From Micromonospora acroterricola (lineage in GTDB: Bacteria > Actinomycetota > Actinomycetes > Mycobacteriales > Micromonosporaceae): 64,000 bases of DNA. The notes beneath the pieces were generated by a model. The model made no database searches and had not been told where the DNA came from. It saw nothing but the letters and a program-made list of their open reading frames with translations. Made by a program: the position numbers and the translations under genes. Positions 12,237 through 47,806 of this stretch are shown one piece after another (position 1 is the stretch's first letter; every line of letters begins with the position of its first letter). The DNA lies in contig NZ_QGKR01000149.1 in the NCBI RefSeq assembly GCF_003172955.1, positions 62,001-126,000 on the forward strand, in the 5' to 3' direction.

Positions 12237-12923
12237 ATGGCCGAGACGACGCTGAGCGAGACATCGGTGGCCCAGGTGATGGCCGAGCTGGCCGACCTGG
12301 AGGACCCGAAGACACGCGAGGTGAACGAGAAACACGGTGACGATCACGGTGTGCACCTCGGCAAGCTGCGCGCGCTCGCGAAGCGGTTGAAGACGCAGCA
12401 GGAGCTCGCCTGCCAGCTCTGGCAGACGGATGACACCGCGGCGAGACTCCTGGCGATTCTGATCTGCCGCCCGAAGGCGTTCGAGCGTGACGAGTTGGAC
12501 GTCATGGTGCGCGAGGCGCACACACCCAAGGTGCACGACTGGCTCGTGAACTACGTGGTGAAGAAGAACCCGCACTCCGAAGGGCTGCGCCTGACCTGGT
12601 TCGCCGACCCGGACCCGGTGGTCGCGAGTGCCGGCTGGGCGCTGACCACCGAACGCGTGGCGAAGAAGCCCGAGGGCCTCGACCTGCCCGGGCTGCTCGA
12701 CGTCATCGAGGCGGAGATGAAGGACGCCCCGGACCGGCTGCAGTGGGCGATGAACCACTGCCTCGCTCAGATCGGGATCGAGCACGCCGAGCACCGCGCC
12801 CGCGCGATCGACATCGGCCAGCGCTTGGGAGTGCTCAGGGACTACCCGACCTCCCCGGGCTGCACGTCTCCGTTCGCGCCCATCTGGATCAGCGAGATGG
12901 TGCGCCGACAGCACGACAGGTAG
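12237..12923 (+). CDS. DNA alkylation repair protein (AlkD-like HEAT repeat)
   Basis: 228 residues of alternating helices matching the AlkD-like family (PF08713 type). It has the motif QQELACQLWQTDDTAARLLAI and the later TWFADPDPVVASAGWAL. AlkC/AlkD enzymes flip and excise alkylated bases, but many actinobacterial members are uncharacterised and may lack glycosylase activity. ATG 12237 has GGGAGG upstream; an earlier in-frame ATG at 12165 is less likely. It is divergent from the flavoprotein gene. Confidence 0.82.
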   Translation: MAETTLSETSVAQVMAELADLEDPKTREVNEKHGDDHGVHLGKLRALAKRLKTQQELACQLWQTDDTAARLLAILICRPKAFERDELDVMVREAHTPKVHDWLVNYVVKKNPHSEGLRLTWFADPDPVVASAGWALTTERVAKKPEGLDLPGLLDVIEAEMKDAPDRLQWAMNHCLAQIGIEHAEHRARAIDIGQRLGVLRDYPTSPGCTSPFAPIWISEMVRRQHDR

Positions 12924-12961
12924 GAAGCCCCACAACTCGTCGCCGTCCGGAGCGGGATCAA

Positions 12962-13048
12962 ATGCGGATGAGCACGGCCGTCGGCGCTGCTACCGTGGCC
13001 GTCATGGCACGAGGTATCTGGTCGCAGAAGGTCCGCTCCGCCCGCTGA
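12962..13048 (+). CDS. Leader peptide upstream of ABC-F gene
   Basis: 28-codon open frame with a GGAG ribosome site, ending in [14 protein letters not shown]; a shorter start at 13004 would give only these 14 residues. It lies 100 nt ahead of the ABC-F start, and the intervening RNA can form several hairpins. Many ABC-F antibiotic-resistance genes of Gram-positives are induced by ribosome stalling on such uORFs. A role here is inference from position and structure. Confidence 0.55.
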
Positions 13049-13144
13049 CGGCGGCGCCTTCCTTCTGCTGAGTTCGCGCTCGCCGTCCCGGTTCCCGCCG
13101 GGCGGCCGCCTGCTGCTGCCCGGCTCCACTGCGAGCTGCGGAGC
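13047..13144 (+). promoter_or_regulatory. Possible attenuator between leader peptide and ABC-F gene
   Basis: Three potential stems follow the leader stop: GACGGCG (13047-13053) with CGCCGTC (13081-13087); CCCGG (13087-13091) with CCGGG (13098-13102); and GCTCC (13123-13127) with GGAGC (13140-13144). The last covers the GGAG ribosome site of the TTG start at 13149. Stems one and two share a base and would compete. Confidence 0.4.
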
Positions 13145-13148
13145 ACCG

Positions 13149-14837
<1,689 letters not shown>

Positions 14838-42207: not shown

Positions 42208-42468
42208 GTGGACGATGGCTCGCTGGACCTGGACCCGGATGGCCTCCTCCAGGTCGCGCGCGGCATCGGCGACCTCGTGGACCTGCTGCTCTCGGTTGAG
42301 CCCCTTGTCGGCAGCGGAGAGGAGAGCCTGGTGTCCTGGGCCGACGAGTTGCCTCGTATCGGCGCGGAGCTTCGCCAGATCGAGGAACTCCTCCGGGAGG
42401 TCACCCGCTCGGTCACGGCGACCGACGACGAGCTGGCGACGCGGCTCGCCCAGCACGGTGACGCATGA
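42208..42468 (+). CDS. Small helical protein resembling ESX/EspC-type secretion substrates
   Basis: 86 residues from GTG 42208 with a strong GGAGGG site. LDPDGLLQVARGIGDLVDLLLSVE followed by a second long helix (ELRQIEELLREVTRSVTATDDELATRL) gives a helix-turn-helix hairpin of WXG100/EspC size, and the VDxDxL-type opening is EspC-like. No canonical WxG turn is seen. Its stop overlaps the next gene's start (ATGA). Both genes face the caspase-EccC gene tail to tail, which supports a type VII-related role (inference). Confidence 0.68.
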   Translation: MDDGSLDLDPDGLLQVARGIGDLVDLLLSVEPLVGSGEESLVSWADELPRIGAELRQIEELLREVTRSVTATDDELATRLAQHGDA

Positions 42469-42971
42469 CGGAGAGACCGGTGTCGTACGCCCGGCTGGTG
42501 GCCGACGCGCCCGGGTCCGGGCCGGACGACGGCGAGCGGTGGGCGCAGGCGGCCAGCACGGCCCGGGACAGCGTTGCCGAGTTGGGCCGGCTGCACCGGC
42601 TTCTCGACGGGCACTGGCGCGCCGGACGCGACCGGGAACAGGTCGGGGAGCTGCTGCGTCGGCTGACCCGCCGGCTCGATGAGGCGCAGGACGCCTACGC
42701 GGCGATCGCCGCAACACTGGCCGACCGCGGCCATGAGCTTGCCCACGCACGTGAGCTGGTCCTCCAGGTGACCCACGAGGCGCGCCTCGTGGGGCTCGTG
42801 GTCACGCCGGAGGGCGAGGTCGTGTCGCCGTCCGGCTCGGCGCCGATGGCGGTGCGGGCCGTCGCGCACCGGCTGACGGCCCGCGTGGCGGAGGCGTTGG
42901 CGCGCGCGGCGGCGGCGCAGCGGAGAGCGGCCGCGGAGGTGGCCGCCCTACCGCCACCCAACCTGTGGTGA
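42465..42971 (+). CDS. Helical partner protein beside caspase-EccC gene
   Basis: 168 residues, almost all helical: RWAQAASTARDSVAELGRLHRLLDGHW, then REQVGELLRRLTRRLDEAQDAYAAIAATLADRGHELAHA, a short beta-like VVTPEGEVVSPSG, and an Ala/Arg-rich C-terminal helix. The two-helix core resembles WXG/PPE-type hairpins, with a possible degenerate turn HWRAG. Translationally coupled to the EspC-like gene. The stop is only 17 nt from the end of the convergent caspase-EccC gene. The function is unknown; a type VII substrate or adaptor is inferred from context. Confidence 0.65.
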   Translation: MTERPVSYARLVADAPGSGPDDGERWAQAASTARDSVAELGRLHRLLDGHWRAGRDREQVGELLRRLTRRLDEAQDAYAAIAATLADRGHELAHARELVLQVTHEARLVGLVVTPEGEVVSPSGSAPMAVRAVAHRLTARVAEALARAAAAQRRAAAEVAALPPPNLW

Positions 42972-42988: not shown

Positions 42989-45900
42989 TCACTCGGGCTC
43001 GACCCAGGCGGTCTGGATGACCTGTTGGCCGTCGCGGCGGCGCACCAGCACTCCCCGACCGGGCGGCTGTGGGCTCGGCCGCAGATTTCCGGCGATGGCG
43101 CCCTCCTCCCGGTTGCCGGACATCAGCAGGACGGGCGTCTCGAGTTCGCGTAGCCGTTGCAGGATCGGCTCGTACAGGGCACGGGCGATGCCGCCGACGC
43201 GGCGGGTGACGATCAGGTGCAGGCCGATGTCACGGGCCTGCGGCAGCAGCTCGTGCAGCGCGCTGAGCGGGTTGTTGCCACCGGAGGCGACCAGGTCGTA
43301 GTCGTCGACCAAGATATACAGCTCGGGGCCCTTCCACCAGCTGCGATCCCGCAGCTGAGCGGCAGTGACCTCCGGCCCGGGCAGCCGATTCTGCATGGCG
43401 GTCCGGATCGACATCAGCCCCTGGCTGAACGCCCCGTTCGACGAGGCGTAGTCGAGCAGGTGCTCCCCCTCCACCGCGCCCAGCAGGCTCCGCCGGTAGT
43501 CCGCGATGACCAGCCGGGCCTGCGCCGGGGTGTGCCTGGCCACGATCTGGCGGGCGATCATCCGCAGCACGTTGGTCTTGCCGCACTCCGCGTCTCCGAA
43601 CACCGTCAGATGCGGATCCGCGGCCAGATCCAGGTAGACCGGAGCCAGTGCCGTCTCGTTGACCCCGATCGGCAGACCTGGCGCGTCACGGTCCGCCACC
43701 CGGTCGAGTTCCGCGACGGAGAGCTGGCGCGGCAGCAGCCGCACCTTCGGCGCCGGAGGGCCGGGCCAGTTCTCCGCTACCTGCCCGGCCAGCGCGACCG
43801 ACGCCTCATTCAGGTCATCGATGTCCCGGCGGCCGTCGATCCGCGAGATGGCGGTCAGGAAGTGCAGCTTGTCGCGGGTCAGGCCGCGACCGGGTGACTT
43901 CTCCGGCACGTTCACGGCCGAGCGGCGGTCAATCTCCGATTCGCCCGGGTCGCCGAGGCGCAGCTCCAGCTTGGTGCCGAGCACATCCCGCATGGTCATC
44001 CGCACCTCCGCCCAGCGGACCGCGGTGAGCACCACGTGCACGCCGAAGCCGAGGCCCCGGTTGGCCAACATGGTGATTGTCTGCTCCAGCTCCTCGTACT
44101 CCTGGCGCACGGTGGTCCAGCCGTCCACCACGAGGAAGACGTCACCGAACGGGTCGTCGGCGAACTCACCAGCGGCCCGGCGACGGCGGTAGCCGACCAC
44201 CGAGTCGATGCCGTGCTGGGCGAAGCGGGCCTCCCGGTCGTCCAGAACCGCCACCACCTCGGCCACTGTCCGGCGCACCGCCTCGGCGTCGCGCCGCCCC
44301 GCCACGCCCGACACGTGCGGCAGCCCCTCCAGGCTGCGCAGCGAGCCACCACCGAAGTCCAGGCAGAAGAACTGCACCTCCCGCGGGGTGTGGGTCAGGG
44401 CCAGCGACGCGATCAACGACCGCAGCATGGTGCTCTTGCCGCTCAGCGCCGTACCCACGATCACCACGTTGCCGCCCGCACCGCCCAGCTCGACCATCAT
44501 CGGGTCACGGCGCTGCTCGTACGGCCGGTCCACCACACCCACCGGCACCGTCAACCGACCCCGGTCCGGTCCGCTCGCACTGCACAAACCGAACTCCGGA
44601 TGCACCGCCAACGGCCCCAGCAAATCGTCCAGGGGTGGCGGGTCGGCCAGCGGCGGTAGCCACACCTGGTGCGCCGGCCGGCCGCGGCCACGTAGCCGGT
44701 CCACCAGGACGTCCAGGACCGTACCGCCGACCCAGGCGTCTCCCTGGGGGGTGTCGGACCCGGCGTCGTCCTGAACGGGCAGGCGGGACACGTGAGCGGC
44801 CCGGAACCGGGTCATCGTCGAGTTGCCGACCTTCAGGTAACCGTGCCCTGGCGCGTTGGGCAGCTCGTACGCGTACGGCACGCCGAGCACGATCCGGCTC
44901 TCCACGGCCGAAAAGGTCCGCAGACCGACCCGGTACGACAGGTGCGTGTCCAGCCCACGCAGCCTGCCCTCCTCCAGCCGCTGCGAGGCCAGCAACAGGT
45001 GCACCCCCAGCGACCGGCCCACCCGGCCGATCATCACGAACAGGTCGATGAAGTCGGGCTTCGCCGCCAACAACTCCGAGAACTCATCACAGATGATCAT
45101 GAGGCTCGGCATCGGCTCCAGCGGCTGACCCGCCGCCCGCGCCTTCTCGTAGTCGTAGCGCGACACGTAGTTCCCCGCCGCCCGCAGCATTTCCTGCCGC
45201 CGGTTCAGCTCACCGGCCAGCGCGTCGCGCATCCGGTCCACCAGCGGCAACTCGTCCGCCAGATTCGTGATCACCGCACTGGTGTGTGGCAACGCGTCCA
45301 ACGACGCGAACGTCGCCCCGCCCTTGAAGTCCACCAGGACGAAGTTCAACTCCTCCGACGAGTGCCGTGCCGCCAGCGCGGCGACCACGGTACGCAGCAG
45401 CTCGCTCTTGCCCGACCCGGTGGCGCCGATGACGAGGCCGTGCGGGCCCATGCCACCCTGGGCCGACTCCTTGAGGTCGAGCAGGACGGGTTGACCGCCC
45501 AACTCGAAGCCGATGGGCACCCGCAGGTGCGTGGCGCCCAGCGGCGTCACGGCCCCGTCGAAGGTCATGAGCGCCTGGTGGTCGGCGAAGCCGAGCACCT
45601 CCAACGCCTCGTCCCTGGTCGCGCCGGCCAGGTCCCCCGCACCGGCCCTCGGGGGTGCCGGCAGGCCCCACGCCTCCGCGATCATCGAGATCATCGCGGT
45701 CGCCCCGTCGGGCACCACCTCGTCGAACTCCGACTCGAGATCCGGGTCGACGTCGGTCACCGTCAGCTCCGGCAGAGCGATCCGGAACGTCCGCCGGCCC
45801 TGGATGGCCCAGCCGGGCATGGACAGTGGCAGCCGAGCGGCATGGTCCGGATCGACCATGGAGTCCGCGGGCTGCGACAGCCGGGTCTCGATCCGCAGCT

Positions 45901-47338
45901 GCGGCAGCTCGGTCAGCTCCTCGGGGATCGTCCGCCAGCTCCGGTCGAGCACGGCGAGGTGGAACCCGTACCCCAGGCCCCGGTTCGCCAACTCGACGAC
46001 CCGGCTGGTGAAGCCGTCCAGCAGCATGGCGAAGTCCTGCCAGCGGTCCACCACCAGGAACACGTCCGGGTACGGCCCGCCCTGCAGCTGGTGTCGCCGC
46101 GCGCGCAGGCTCGCGGGTGACTCCAGCTCGTGGTCCCGAAAGAGCCGCTTGCGCCGCAGCACGTCGTCCTCGAGCCGGGTCAGCAGCTTGCCCAGCTCTT
46201 CGACCTCGTCGTCGCCCAACACCGTCTGTACGTGCGGCAGTCGCCGCATCGGTCCCAACCAGTTGCCACCCGACTCCAGGCAGTGGAACACCACCTCGTC
46301 GGCGGAGTGGGTGAGCGCAAGACCCCCGATTATCGTGCGCAACAAGGTCGTCTTGCCCATCCCGGCCCGTCCCACGATGAGCAGATGCCCCTCCGAGGAC
46401 GCCAGGTCCAGCGACACCGGCTCACCGGAGCGCTGATCGACACGCTCGCTGCGGCCGACCGGCACCTTGAGCAGTCCCCGCTGCCGCCACTCGACCGCGC
46501 ACAGCTTCAGGTCGTCGACGGCCTTCAGTGGGCCGAGCAGGTCACCGAGCCGCGGATCCCGCTGGTCCCGCTGCCCACGCGGCCGGTGGTGCCCGTCCCG
46601 GGACAACGCGACGTGCACCTCACTGCTCGCCCGGCCGAACTGGCAGGGCGACTGCTCGGTGGTGCGCTTCGGCAACTCCAGCTGCACGTACCGCCACAGG
46701 TCCTCCGGGGTGATCCGGCCCCGGCCGGTCAGGTCGGCCGCCCCGGTGCTCAGGCCCTGGATGACCGTCTCCGTGAACGCGGACCGCTGCCGCGGCGTGG
46801 CCGCGGTGGCCGGCTGGCCGTCGCCGGCCCGCTCCACCGAGTTCGTTGCGGTGATGACGTACCGGCCGTCGCCTGCCTTCAGCTCCCCGTCCAGGTTGAG
46901 CTCGGCCGGCGACTTGGACTGCTCGAACGCGCCGCTGTAGCAGCAGTCGAGCAGGATGATCGAGCTGGCCGCCGGTGACTCGTCGAGCAGCTCGTGGACG
47001 AACGACGCCGAGATCGCCGTCGACGACAGGTACTTGGCCTCGGTGTTGGCGACCGCCAGGTAGAACCGGCCCTTGGGGCCGCGGCGGATCCCGTGGCCGG
47101 AGAAGTAGAGCAGGATGAGGTCTTCCGGGCCGGCGCCGCGCAGCATCATCTCGATGTTGCGCTCGACCGAGCTCTTCGACTCGTTCTCCAGCAGGATCGT
47201 CCGGTCGAACGCCCCGATGTCCGCGTCGGCGAGCAGGCTCTGCAGATCCCGGGCCTCCTCGCGCGGGGCATAGAGGTCAGCCAGCGACTGGTCGATGTAG
47301 CGGTCGTTGGCGATGAGCAGGGCCAGTCGCTGTCCCAC
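42989..47338 (-). CDS. Caspase-like protease fused to EccC-type FtsK/SpoIIIE ATPase chain
   Basis: About 1449 residues. Residues 1-245 form a caspase (C14) domain with His82 (YFSGHGIRRG) and Cys133 (LLDCCYSGAF). Four FtsK/EccC-type modules follow. Module 0 has GRAGMGKTT near 322. Module 1 is fully canonical: GATGSGKS near 637, Walker B IICDEFSE near 747, LASQR. Module 2 has GTALSGKS near 961 and module 3 has GDAECGKT near 1247; their Walker B regions (FLVVDG, ILVDDYD) lack the catalytic DE pair. Canonical EccC has the same 0-1-2-3 order behind two membrane helices; here a caspase replaces them, and no membrane segment is visible. GTG 47338 with GGGAG; 3 nt after the EACC1-like gene. Confidence 0.92.
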   Translation of the reverse strand: MGQRLALLIANDRYIDQSLADLYAPREEARDLQSLLADADIGAFDRTILLENESKSSVERNIEMMLRGAGPEDLILLYFSGHGIRRGPKGRFYLAVANTEAKYLSSTAISASFVHELLDESPAASSIILLDCCYSGAFEQSKSPAELNLDGELKAGDGRYVITATNSVERAGDGQPATAATPRQRSAFTETVIQGLSTGAADLTGRGRITPEDLWRYVQLELPKRTTEQSPCQFGRASSEVHVALSRDGHHRPRGQRDQRDPRLGDLLGPLKAVDDLKLCAVEWRQRGLLKVPVGRSERVDQRSGEPVSLDLASSEGHLLIVGRAGMGKTTLLRTIIGGLALTHSADEVVFHCLESGGNWLGPMRRLPHVQTVLGDDEVEELGKLLTRLEDDVLRRKRLFRDHELESPASLRARRHQLQGGPYPDVFLVVDRWQDFAMLLDGFTSRVVELANRGLGYGFHLAVLDRSWRTIPEELTELPQLRIETRLSQPADSMVDPDHAARLPLSMPGWAIQGRRTFRIALPELTVTDVDPDLESEFDEVVPDGATAMISMIAEAWGLPAPPRAGAGDLAGATRDEALEVLGFADHQALMTFDGAVTPLGATHLRVPIGFELGGQPVLLDLKESAQGGMGPHGLVIGATGSGKSELLRTVVAALAARHSSEELNFVLVDFKGGATFASLDALPHTSAVITNLADELPLVDRMRDALAGELNRRQEMLRAAGNYVSRYDYEKARAAGQPLEPMPSLMIICDEFSELLAAKPDFIDLFVMIGRVGRSLGVHLLLASQRLEEGRLRGLDTHLSYRVGLRTFSAVESRIVLGVPYAYELPNAPGHGYLKVGNSTMTRFRAAHVSRLPVQDDAGSDTPQGDAWVGGTVLDVLVDRLRGRGRPAHQVWLPPLADPPPLDDLLGPLAVHPEFGLCSASGPDRGRLTVPVGVVDRPYEQRRDPMMVELGGAGGNVVIVGTALSGKSTMLRSLIASLALTHTPREVQFFCLDFGGGSLRSLEGLPHVSGVAGRRDAEAVRRTVAEVVAVLDDREARFAQHGIDSVVGYRRRRAAGEFADDPFGDVFLVVDGWTTVRQEYEELEQTITMLANRGLGFGVHVVLTAVRWAEVRMTMRDVLGTKLELRLGDPGESEIDRRSAVNVPEKSPGRGLTRDKLHFLTAISRIDGRRDIDDLNEASVALAGQVAENWPGPPAPKVRLLPRQLSVAELDRVADRDAPGLPIGVNETALAPVYLDLAADPHLTVFGDAECGKTNVLRMIARQIVARHTPAQARLVIADYRRSLLGAVEGEHLLDYASSNGAFSQGLMSIRTAMQNRLPGPEVTAAQLRDRSWWKGPELYILVDDYDLVASGGNNPLSALHELLPQARDIGLHLIVTRRVGGIARALYEPILQRLRELETPVLLMSGNREEGAIAGNLRPSPQPPGRGVLVRRRDGQQVIQTAWVEPE

Positions 47339-47341
47339 GGC

Positions 47342-47806
47342 TCACGCTCCCGTGCCGCCCGAGCGGGGCCGGGGAGCCGGAGGCGGGGCAGCCTGCTCCC
47401 CGGAGGACGACGGGAGGGCCGACCCGGACGGGACGGACGTCTCGATCAGGCGCGCCAACCCGGCGACGAGCGTGGGATCGTCGATCCGGGTGCTGCCGGT
47501 GATGACCAGCTCGGTGTCGCCGCGGCGGATGCGGATCGACCGCGTCCTGGTCCGCTCGGCGTACGCGATGGCGATCTGGGCGATGGCCCGCATCGTGGTG
47601 GCCGAGAAGAGGCCGCCCACCGCCAGCATGCCGAGCTCCCACGCCTGCACGGACTTGCTCCCGTGCCCCGGGTCCGCGGCGGCGACGGACGTGACCTGTA
47701 GCCGGGCCATCGTCCGCAGGTCGTCACCGAGCCCCTGCGTGAGGGCGTCGAGTCGCTCGCCGCCGATCGGTTGCTCCGGTTCGACCACCAACACCAGTTC
47801 CGGCAT
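47342..47806 (-). CDS. EACC1-like protein (effector-associated constant component)
   Basis: 154 residues. An N-terminal alpha/beta part (LVLVVEPEQPIGGERLDALTQGLGDDLRTMARLQVTSV) is followed by a hydrophobic helical segment (AWELGMLAVGGLFSATTMRAIAQIAIAYAERTRT) and SIRIRRGDTELVITGSTRIDDPTLVAGL. The order of beta-alpha, hydrophobic helix and closing beta hairpin matches EACC1, known from comparative genomics as a recurrent partner of caspase-type conflict effectors. The tail is Pro/Ser-rich. ATG has AAGGGGTG upstream. It is first in a two-gene operon with the caspase-EccC fusion. Confidence 0.8.
   Translation of the reverse strand: MPELVLVVEPEQPIGGERLDALTQGLGDDLRTMARLQVTSVAAADPGHGSKSVQAWELGMLAVGGLFSATTMRAIAQIAIAYAERTRTRSIRIRRGDTELVITGSTRIDDPTLVAGLARLIETSVPSGSALPSSSGEQAAPPPAPRPRSGGTGA

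What the first reader, a model, noticed from the sequence alone, without database searches (positions are those of the whole stretch)
42208..42971. Two coupled small helical genes face the caspase-EccC gene and resemble ESX substrates
An 86-aa EspC-like hairpin and a 168-aa helical protein overlap by ATGA and end 17 nt from the convergent caspase-EccC gene. EccC partners normally are WXG100/EspC-type hairpins. They may be the ligand or inhibitor of the fused motor. Their opposite orientation is unusual and would permit independent control of sensor and trigger.
Basis: inference. Interest (0 to 1): 0.72.

Follow-up and report, generated by a model that had tools for sequence, protein, structure and literature searches.

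The report
Secretion-substrate-like pair beside a caspase-motor gene
Two small overlapping genes look like a protein pair normally exported by the type VII secretion machine, but they carry no toxin or other cargo and were found only beside a gene that fuses a caspase-type protease to that machine's motor, so they may be its dedicated control ligand.

Summary
In detail: P1 (86 aa) and P2 (168 aa) overlap by ATGA and end 17 nt from the convergent caspase-EccC gene. Among 160 Micromonospora genomes 24 have caspase-EccC and 11 have P2; all 11 have the whole pair beside caspase-EccC in the same order and orientation. None of the 136 others has it, one weak match set aside. The other 13 genus loci and 9 of 9 assessable outside loci lack it. 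Both proteins resemble type VII (ESX) substrate pairs: P2 the N-terminal targeting domain of secreted effectors, P1 their EspC-type partner, supported by profiles, gene order, swapped controls and weak but top-ranked PE/PPE fold matches. P2 has no cargo domain. P1 keeps the hydrophobic export-arm pattern but has V or A where relatives' partners mostly have Y or F. The locus is an EACC1-caspase conflict system whose effector part is an ESX motor. Best reading: the pair is a dedicated docking ligand of caspase-EccC. Binding, and whether it activates or restrains, are untested.

The parts
42208..42468 (+). P1, 86 aa, GTG start: EspC/PE-type helical hairpin (predicted helices 10-29 and 39-84)
   Evidence: fold model; hhalign to EspC-type partners
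42412..42447 (+). P1 residues 69-80: export-arm pattern HxxxD/ExxhxxxH (V69, D73, L76, L80); V instead of the Y of YxxxD/E
   Evidence: columns; motif definitions from passages of PMC10765036 and PMC7028111
42465..42971 (+). P2, 168 aa, ATG overlapping the P1 stop: WXG100_2/PPE-like targeting domain without a cargo domain
   Evidence: fold model; hhalign to effector N-terminal domains
42615..42626 (+). P2 W51-x-x-G54, variant of the WxG turn motif, W and G invariant in 11 of 11
   Evidence: same WxxG spacing in 3 of 5 aligned distant relatives
42989..47338 (-). caspase-EccC gene, 1449 aa
46640..47329 (-). EACC1-associated caspase domain (residues 4-233), FSGHG and DCCYSG motifs present
   Evidence: NF047832 159.5 bits over cut-off 140; PF00656 residues 4-233; motifs
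42992..43756 (-). module 4 = EccC ATPase3, holding the substrate-tail pocket (L1295 Y1297 Q1306 S1310 I1311 A1314 M1315 R1318 P1338 L1340)
   Evidence: mapped by reading alignments to MtEccCb1 and T. curvata EccC; PMC6954902 sections 7-9; conservation
47342..47806 (-). EACC1-like gene directly upstream of caspase-EccC (start codon not settled)
   Evidence: PF19953 E 0.0046, 17.4 bits, below cut-off 23.6; homologue upstream in 24 of 24 genus loci

Best explanation
P1 and P2 are a cargo-less ESX-type substrate heterodimer (P1 the EspC/PE-type partner carrying the export arm, P2 the WXG100_2/PPE-type partner carrying the W turn) that has become a dedicated regulatory ligand of the EACC1-caspase-EccC protein. 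Shown: likeness of both genes, as a pair, to ESX substrate pairs; linkage and co-inheritance with caspase-EccC; absence of a cargo domain; an ATPase3 pocket in pair-carrying caspase-EccC that is nearly that of the ESX motors. Inferred: that P1 and P2 dimerise, that the P1 tail docks in module 4, and that docking changes motor assembly and so brings N-terminal caspase domains together (activation) or keeps them apart (restraint). The 0.5 covers both signs; I judge activation or licensing slightly likelier, because most lineages without the pair keep intact caspase motifs.
For: The P1 profile, run on 3239 ORFs of 20 loci, gave 13 hits at E up to 1: 7 are the ORF directly upstream of the P2 relative (7 of 12 such loci, E 1.6e-5 to 0.74), 2 are EspC-type genes of this genome, 3 are P2 relatives and 1 an EccC. 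hhalign: P2 family versus effector N-terminal domains 99.0%, E 4e-18; P1 family versus EspC-type partners 96.7%, E 3.2e-10; swapped comparisons 12.5% and 0.3% (the compared rows had been picked by the same profiles). Family rows match WXG100_2 (6 of 11 P2 rows, best E 1e-5) and EspC (5 of 11 P1 rows, best 9.6e-4). Foldseek ranks PE25 first for P1 and PPE chains first to third for P2. 11 of 11 genomes with the pair have it beside caspase-EccC; 0 of 136 genomes without caspase-EccC have a P2 match that I count (Fisher p 8e-11, genomes not independent). Distances correlate with caspase-EccC: P2 r 0.94, P1 r 0.89. Pocket matches the ESX consensus at 95.5% of positions in 11 carriers versus 74.2% in 12 non-carriers.
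Against: 13 of 24 genus loci and 9 of 9 assessable outside loci lack the pair, so caspase-EccC is kept without it. The pocket signal is modest (51 and 26 of 2000 random position sets as large on exact identity; 587 and 222 of 2000 when conservative changes count), is not corrected for phylogeny and may partly come from gene conversion; G019 lacks the pair but has a perfect pocket. No complex was predicted or measured. Foldseek found no match at E up to 0.001 for either model (best 0.043 and 0.14), and Z about 10 lies under the tool's caution of 13 for helical bundles, tied with unrelated rows. P1 meets the broad export-arm pattern, so export is not excluded.
Confidence: 0.5

Rival explanations
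1. P1-P2 is an ordinary exported ESX substrate pair and caspase-EccC is a soluble accessory motor that feeds it, and perhaps processes it, into the housekeeping ESX channel encoded elsewhere in the genome.
For: Export-arm pattern HxxxD/ExxhxxxH kept in P1; an ESX locus exists (EsxA/B-like, EccC, EccD, EccB over cut-off, EccE-like below it); M2-M4 of caspase-EccC are 84-86% identical to that locus's EccC, and the ATPase3 pocket is the same but for M/L at one place. Caspases are listed among proteases of T7SS polymorphic toxins (PMC3482391, passages).
Against: Position of the Y of YxxxD/E is V or A in 11 of 11, while partners at the 12 opened relative loci have Y in 4, F in 7 and L in 1 (read by eye); no cargo domain; the EccCa model covers only positions 385-670 of 673 in its best of four stretches, so the usual membrane part is not evident.
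Confidence: 0.25
2. The pair is a decayed T7SS effector-plus-partner that lost its toxin domain and persists beside caspase-EccC by history.
For: P2 resembles the N-terminal domain of effectors such as the alpha/beta hydrolase of L123, without the C-terminal part; 4-5 changes of presence on the tree.
Against: P2 ends at a similar place in 10 of 11 members, with about 20 residues more in G078; dN/dS 0.14-0.56; same cargo-less form, order and orientation in 11 of 11, and found nowhere else by the search of 160 genomes.
Confidence: 0.13
3. Sub-case of the best explanation, its odds being part of that 0.5: the pair is an inhibitor (antitoxin-like) that keeps the caspase-EccC motor apart until it is removed.
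For: Separate transcription unit on the opposite strand; linkage to caspase-EccC; a docking partner without cargo is what a pseudosubstrate would look like (inference).
Against: The caspase motifs are intact in 12 of 12 non-carrier genus rows examined, which is hard to reconcile with an essential restraint; the thirteenth, G128, has an early in-frame stop, as loss of a restraint might select.
Confidence: 0.2
4. P1 and P2 are generic helical proteins whose ESX likeness is compositional.
For: Single-sequence Pfam scores are weak; designed helical proteins match the P1 and P2 profiles in the PDB at E about 1e-6.
Against: Reversed controls (6 P2 and 3 P1 rows) give no WXG100_2 or EspC hit, and one WXG100 hit at E 0.2; gene order of both relatives; negative swapped hhalign controls.
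Confidence: 0.03

Closest known systems
PE/PPE heterodimers of ESX systems (PE25-PPE41, PE8-PPE15)
   Same: Small hairpin partner plus a longer helical partner with a W turn; top-ranked though weak fold matches of P1 and P2 respectively
   Different: No match to the Pfam PPE or PE models by window P1 or P2 at E up to 1; tyrosine of YxxxD/E missing; convergent with and linked to a caspase-EccC gene
EspC (PF10824) plus WXG100_2 (PF25547) effector pairs of actinobacterial T7SS
   Same: Same order, small partner first; related domains. This genome has such tandems at C66 (both models over cut-off) and C344 (WXG100_2 over cut-off, EspC only E 0.49)
   Different: P2 has no C-terminal effector domain; the pair was found only at caspase-EccC loci
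EACC1 two-gene conflict systems (Kaur et al. 2020, PMC7159879, System 4)
   Same: 5' EACC1-like gene and 3' gene with an N-terminal EACC1-associated caspase and a variable C-terminal part
   Different: The variable part is a multi-module EccC motor, and in 11 of 24 genus loci a convergent ESX-substrate-like pair is added; neither appears in the passages and section read
EccC-EsxB recognition (PMC6954902)
   Same: ATPase3 pocket, and a partner whose C-terminal helix has spaced hydrophobic residues
   Different: No binding tested; the motor is fused to a caspase and an extra FtsK-like module, and the usual membrane region is not evident

Membership tests
T7SS EspC/PE-type small partner (P1) | Match to PF10824 T7SS_ESX_EspC | tested here: inconclusive
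   Window P1 itself has no hit; 5 of 11 family rows match at E up to 1, best 9.6e-4; reversed controls 0 of 3, but noise hits to other families reach E 0.0028
T7SS EspC/PE-type small partner (P1) | Helix-turn-helix hairpin | tested here: met
   AlphaFold2 pLDDT 80.6, helices 10-29 and 39-84; first Foldseek match PE25, E 0.043, none at E up to 0.001
T7SS EspC/PE-type small partner (P1) | Export-arm pattern HxxxD/ExxhxxxH | tested here: met
   Positions 69/73/76/80 are V(10) or A(1), D/E, L/M/I/V, L/F in 11 of 11
T7SS EspC/PE-type small partner (P1) | Strict YxxxD/E secretion motif | tested here: not met
   No Y at position 69 in 11 of 11. The strict form also fails in 8 of the 12 relatives' partners read by eye: Y 4, F 7, L 1
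WXG100/WXG100_2/PPE-type partner (P2) | Match to Pfam models of the superfamily | tested here: inconclusive
   Window P2: WXG100 E 0.091, below cut-off; 6 of 11 rows match WXG100_2, best E 1e-5, and 3 match WXG100; of 10 relatives scanned 7 match WXG100_2, only L125 over its cut-off, where WXG100 and PPE also pass
WXG100/WXG100_2/PPE-type partner (P2) | W-x-G motif in the turn | tested here: inconclusive
   Strict WxG is not met: W-x-x-G in 11 of 11; 3 of 5 aligned relatives share the WxxG spacing
WXG100/WXG100_2/PPE-type partner (P2) | Long helical bundle of PPE size | tested here: met
   Model pLDDT 81.9; PPE chains are Foldseek rows 1-3 (E 0.14-0.17) and VIA rows 1-6, Z 9.8-10.3 over 146-150 residues, tied with unrelated row 7 and under the helical-bundle caution of 13
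EACC1-caspase two-gene conflict system | N-terminal EACC1-associated caspase with His/Cys motifs | tested here: met
   NF047832 159.5 bits versus cut-off 140; GHG and DCC.SG present in 32 of 32 caspase-EccC rows examined, G128 left out. That these hold the catalytic dyad is recalled
EACC1-caspase two-gene conflict system | 5' EACC1 gene | tested here: inconclusive
   PF19953 17.4 bits, cut-off 23.6; homologue directly upstream in 24 of 24 genus loci and 9 of 10 outside loci by tblastn
EACC1-caspase two-gene conflict system | Role in conflict or cell death | not testable with these tools
   Prediction in PMC7159879; no experiment here
ESX secretion motor (EccC) | EccC ATPase modules | tested here: met
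   TIGR03925 EccCb 1073.6 bits, full length; 1078.9 bits to 4nh0
ESX secretion motor (EccC) | N-terminal membrane part and ESX core genes alongside | tested here: inconclusive
   Best of four EccCa stretches covers profile 385-670 of 673; no transmembrane prediction run; core genes found on contig C347; genes next to the pair were only read from ORF lists

The most novel reading that the evidence does not exclude
Caspase-EccC is an integrated decoy of the cell's ESX motor: its motor modules copy the real one, including by gene conversion in several lineages, and a cargo-less mimic of an ESX substrate pair sets or triggers it, so that proper or improper engagement of type VII substrates switches a caspase. 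This would be a bacterial guard system for a secretion machine.
Probability: 0.22. Interest if true: 0.87.

Novelty: new variant of a known kind. Interest (0 to 1): 0.62.

Why it matters
EACC1-caspase systems are predicted death or defence switches whose triggers are not known from the papers seen here. In this case the effector part is a secretion motor whose natural ligands belong to a known class, and a candidate ligand of that very class sits next door. That makes the trigger question directly testable with two small proteins and one module. It also suggests that secretion-substrate recognition has been reused as a signalling contact.

Tried and rejected
PF22905 (Hydro_N_hd), the only Pfam hit of window P1, found nothing in the own genome, and I dropped it. 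PRTRC_E (NCBIfam, E 0.0029 for P2) was set aside as one sub-threshold match at the level of noise seen with reversed sequences. PADLOC gave no hit for P1 and one at E 0.4 for P2. PDB sequence searches with the two profiles returned designed helical proteins at the top and other unrelated chains below, which warns of helical bias; I therefore leaned on gene order and swapped hhalign controls. A weak P2 hit at G094 (E 0.043) lies antisense to a coding-like ORF; the profiles find no divergent copy in any pair-less locus. Whole-molecule concerted evolution of caspase-EccC with its own ESX motor was tested and is not general: the own ESX EccC ranks first for 2 of 20 genomes; conversion-like similarity is confined to tracts. 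Rows dropped before counts: G153 (E 9.2e-4) and the second hit of G097 (E 1.3e-4); G128 (early stop) from trees and pocket counts; G207 (contig ends inside the gene) from outside-genus counts. Limits: one search scored at most 22 candidates a genome and at most 12, so misses are possible; one search held 10 of the 11 pair genomes (G078 was not drawn).

Full report
What is there. P1 (86 aa) and P2 (168 aa) are read at the stated places, overlap by ATGA and converge on the caspase-EccC gene with 17 nt between the stop codons. The genome (G000) appears to be a Micromonospora: four relatives of P2 found by a separate scan are named M. noduli, M. lupini, M. foliorum and Micromonospora sp. MW-13, and their contigs match genomes that the genome search places in the same genus.

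Distribution. Of 160 genus genomes, 24 have caspase-EccC (593-aa N-terminal query, E up to 1e-60) and 12 have a P2 match at E up to 0.001. I count 11, leaving out G153 (E 9.2e-4, no caspase-EccC). All 11 are among the 24, and in all 11 P1 and P2 lie beside caspase-EccC in the same order and orientation; in G086 the block is split over two contigs, the pair lying next to the last 53 residues of caspase-EccC. Fisher p is 8e-11, treating genomes as independent, which they are not. The remaining 13 genus loci and 9 of 9 assessable outside loci (10 found; G207 is cut by its contig end) have no pair, also by profile search of 6803 ORFs from 34 loci. An EACC1 homologue lies upstream in 24 of 24 genus loci and was found by tblastn in 9 of 10 outside loci. 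Among coding-like flanking ORFs of the pair loci, the families shared next after EACC1 reach 3 genomes. So the four genes look like the unit.

History. On a caspase-EccC tree of 32 rows the pair needs 5 changes, at least 4 of them forced by well supported branches. Distances of P1 and P2 correlate with those of caspase-EccC (r 0.89 and 0.94, Mantel p 0.0001), and the P2 tree repeats the seven-genome clade; its other four rows are unresolved. This suggests joint inheritance with repeated loss, though gains or joint transfer are not excluded. dN/dS was 0.14-0.56 in six comparisons.

What the proteins are. Single-sequence Pfam scores are weak, but across the family WXG100_2 matches 6 of 11 P2 rows (best E 1e-5) and EspC matches 5 of 11 P1 rows (best E 9.6e-4). 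Nine reversed rows give no WXG100_2 or EspC hit; one gives WXG100 at E 0.2, and noise hits to other families reach E 0.0028. The P2 profile, run over 300 family genomes, matches 26: 10 of the pair genomes and 16 outside the genus. In the 12 outside loci opened, the match lies in frames of 315-824 aa, stop to stop. Of 10 scanned with Pfam, 7 match WXG100_2; L123 is an alpha/beta hydrolase; L125 alone passes cut-offs, those of WXG100_2, WXG100 and PPE; L120 and L121 match nothing and L126 only DUF6571. The P1 profile, run on 3239 ORFs of 20 loci, gives 13 hits at E up to 1: 7 are the ORF directly upstream of the P2 relative (7 of 12 such loci), 2 are EspC-type genes of this genome, 3 are P2 relatives themselves and 1 is the ESX EccC. 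Profile-profile comparison gives P2 versus five such effector domains 99.0%, E 4e-18, 153 columns, with the W turn in register, and P1 versus seven EspC-type partners 96.7%, E 3.2e-10; swapped controls give 12.5% and 0.3%. The compared rows had been chosen through, so these two comparisons are not independent evidence; the Pfam matches, the gene order and the folds are. In this genome C66 holds an EspC-then-WXG100_2 tandem with both models over cut-off; C344 holds a weaker one (EspC E 0.49).

Fold. P1 is a hairpin (pLDDT 80.6) and P2 a long helical bundle with a short beta hairpin (pLDDT 81.9). Foldseek over 350,542 PDB chains puts PE25 first for P1 and PPE41, PPE4, PPE41 first to third for P2, but with E-values of 0.043 and 0.14-0.17 and none at or below 0.001. 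VIA rows 1-6 for P2 are PPE chains (Z 9.8-10.3), tied with an unrelated row 7; for P1 ESX proteins are mixed with unrelated coiled coils.

Signals. P1 keeps HxxxD/ExxhxxxH (69/73/76/80) in 11 of 11, counting one A at the first place, but has V (10) or A (1) where YxxxD/E has Y. Partners at the 12 opened relative loci, read by eye, have Y in 4, F in 7 and L in 1, so the strict tyrosine is not universal there either; what P1 lacks is the aromatic residue. P2 has W-x-x-G, not strict W-x-G, in 11 of 11; three of five aligned relatives share that spacing. P2 ends without a cargo domain. Motif definitions come from passages of PMC7028111 and PMC10765036.

The motor. Caspase-EccC has an EACC1-associated caspase over its curated cut-off and a full EccCb match. 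GHG and DCC.SG motifs are present in 32 of 32 rows, G128 left out. Its three C-terminal modules are 84-86% identical to the EccC of the genome's own ESX locus, whose EsxA/B-like, EccD and EccB genes pass their cut-offs, while EccE is below. I mapped the ATPase3 tail pocket from PMC6954902 (abstract and sections 7-9) by reading alignments. Eleven carriers match the ESX pocket, which is invariant in 21 of 21 ESX EccC, at 95.5% of ten positions; 12 non-carriers match at 74.2%. Random position sets reach that difference in 51 of 2000 draws; with only the four carriers outside the seven-genome clade (90.0%) in 26 of 2000. With conservative changes counted as matches the signal fades (587 and 222 of 2000), and it is not corrected for phylogeny. 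DNA windows, examined in the 11 carriers and one non-carrier, show tracts at least as close to the own ESX eccC as to any other genome's in 8 of those 12 (no test of significance), so part of the signal may be gene conversion.

Mechanism. I commit to a dedicated docking ligand of caspase-EccC. Likeness, linkage and lack of cargo are shown. Dimerisation, docking in module 4 and the sign of the effect are inferred. That EsxB binding drives EccC multimerisation is recalled (Rosenberg 2015, not read). Loss of the pair with caspase motifs intact in 12 of 12 non-carrier rows speaks against an essential inhibitor; the early stop in the thirteenth, G128, could speak for one. The odds of the inhibitor reading are part of the 0.5, which the first version did not say.

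Known or new. The EACC1-caspase architecture is published (PMC7159879, passages and section 33 read); PMC8195603 (passages) adds related systems. PMC3482391 (passages) lists caspases among proteases of T7SS toxins. The M. lupini genome paper lists EccC and Esx genes and its main text has no occurrence of 'caspase'. No listing of seven paper searches (open-licence papers only) named a caspase-EccC with an adjacent substrate pair; I saw capped lists of titles and abstract openings, and passages of the papers named, not whole texts.

Noticed in passing
window 42992-45541 (caspase-EccC M2-M4) and homologues; own ESX eccC at L160:3704-7951: Gene-conversion-like tracts: in 8 of 12 genomes examined (clearest in G106, G096, G097, G165) some 40-codon windows of caspase-EccC are over 93% identical to the same genome's ESX eccC and at least as close to it as to any other genome's copy (protein level). 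No significance test was made.
   Followed up: partly
L160:12274-12642 and 12635-13948: The own ESX locus holds an overlapping small-gene/WXG100 pair next to eccB, on the strand opposite to eccC; the small gene matched no family model at E up to 0.05 in Pfam or 0.01 in NCBIfam.
   Followed up: partly
L082 (G128): This caspase-EccC gene has an in-frame TAG after about 52 codons, so it may be broken or misread in a draft assembly.
   Followed up: no
window 45659-46483, minus (residues 286-560 of caspase-EccC): An extra FtsK-like module with an apparently intact Walker A lies between the caspase and the three usual EccC modules; it resembles module 3 (33% over about 300 residues).
   Followed up: no
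L117-L122, L124: Frames of about 330-400 aa in one other genus (g51) carry the P2-like domain with a C-terminal part without Pfam match at E up to 0.01, preceded by small partners with F (six) or Y (L119) at the export-motif position.
   Followed up: partly
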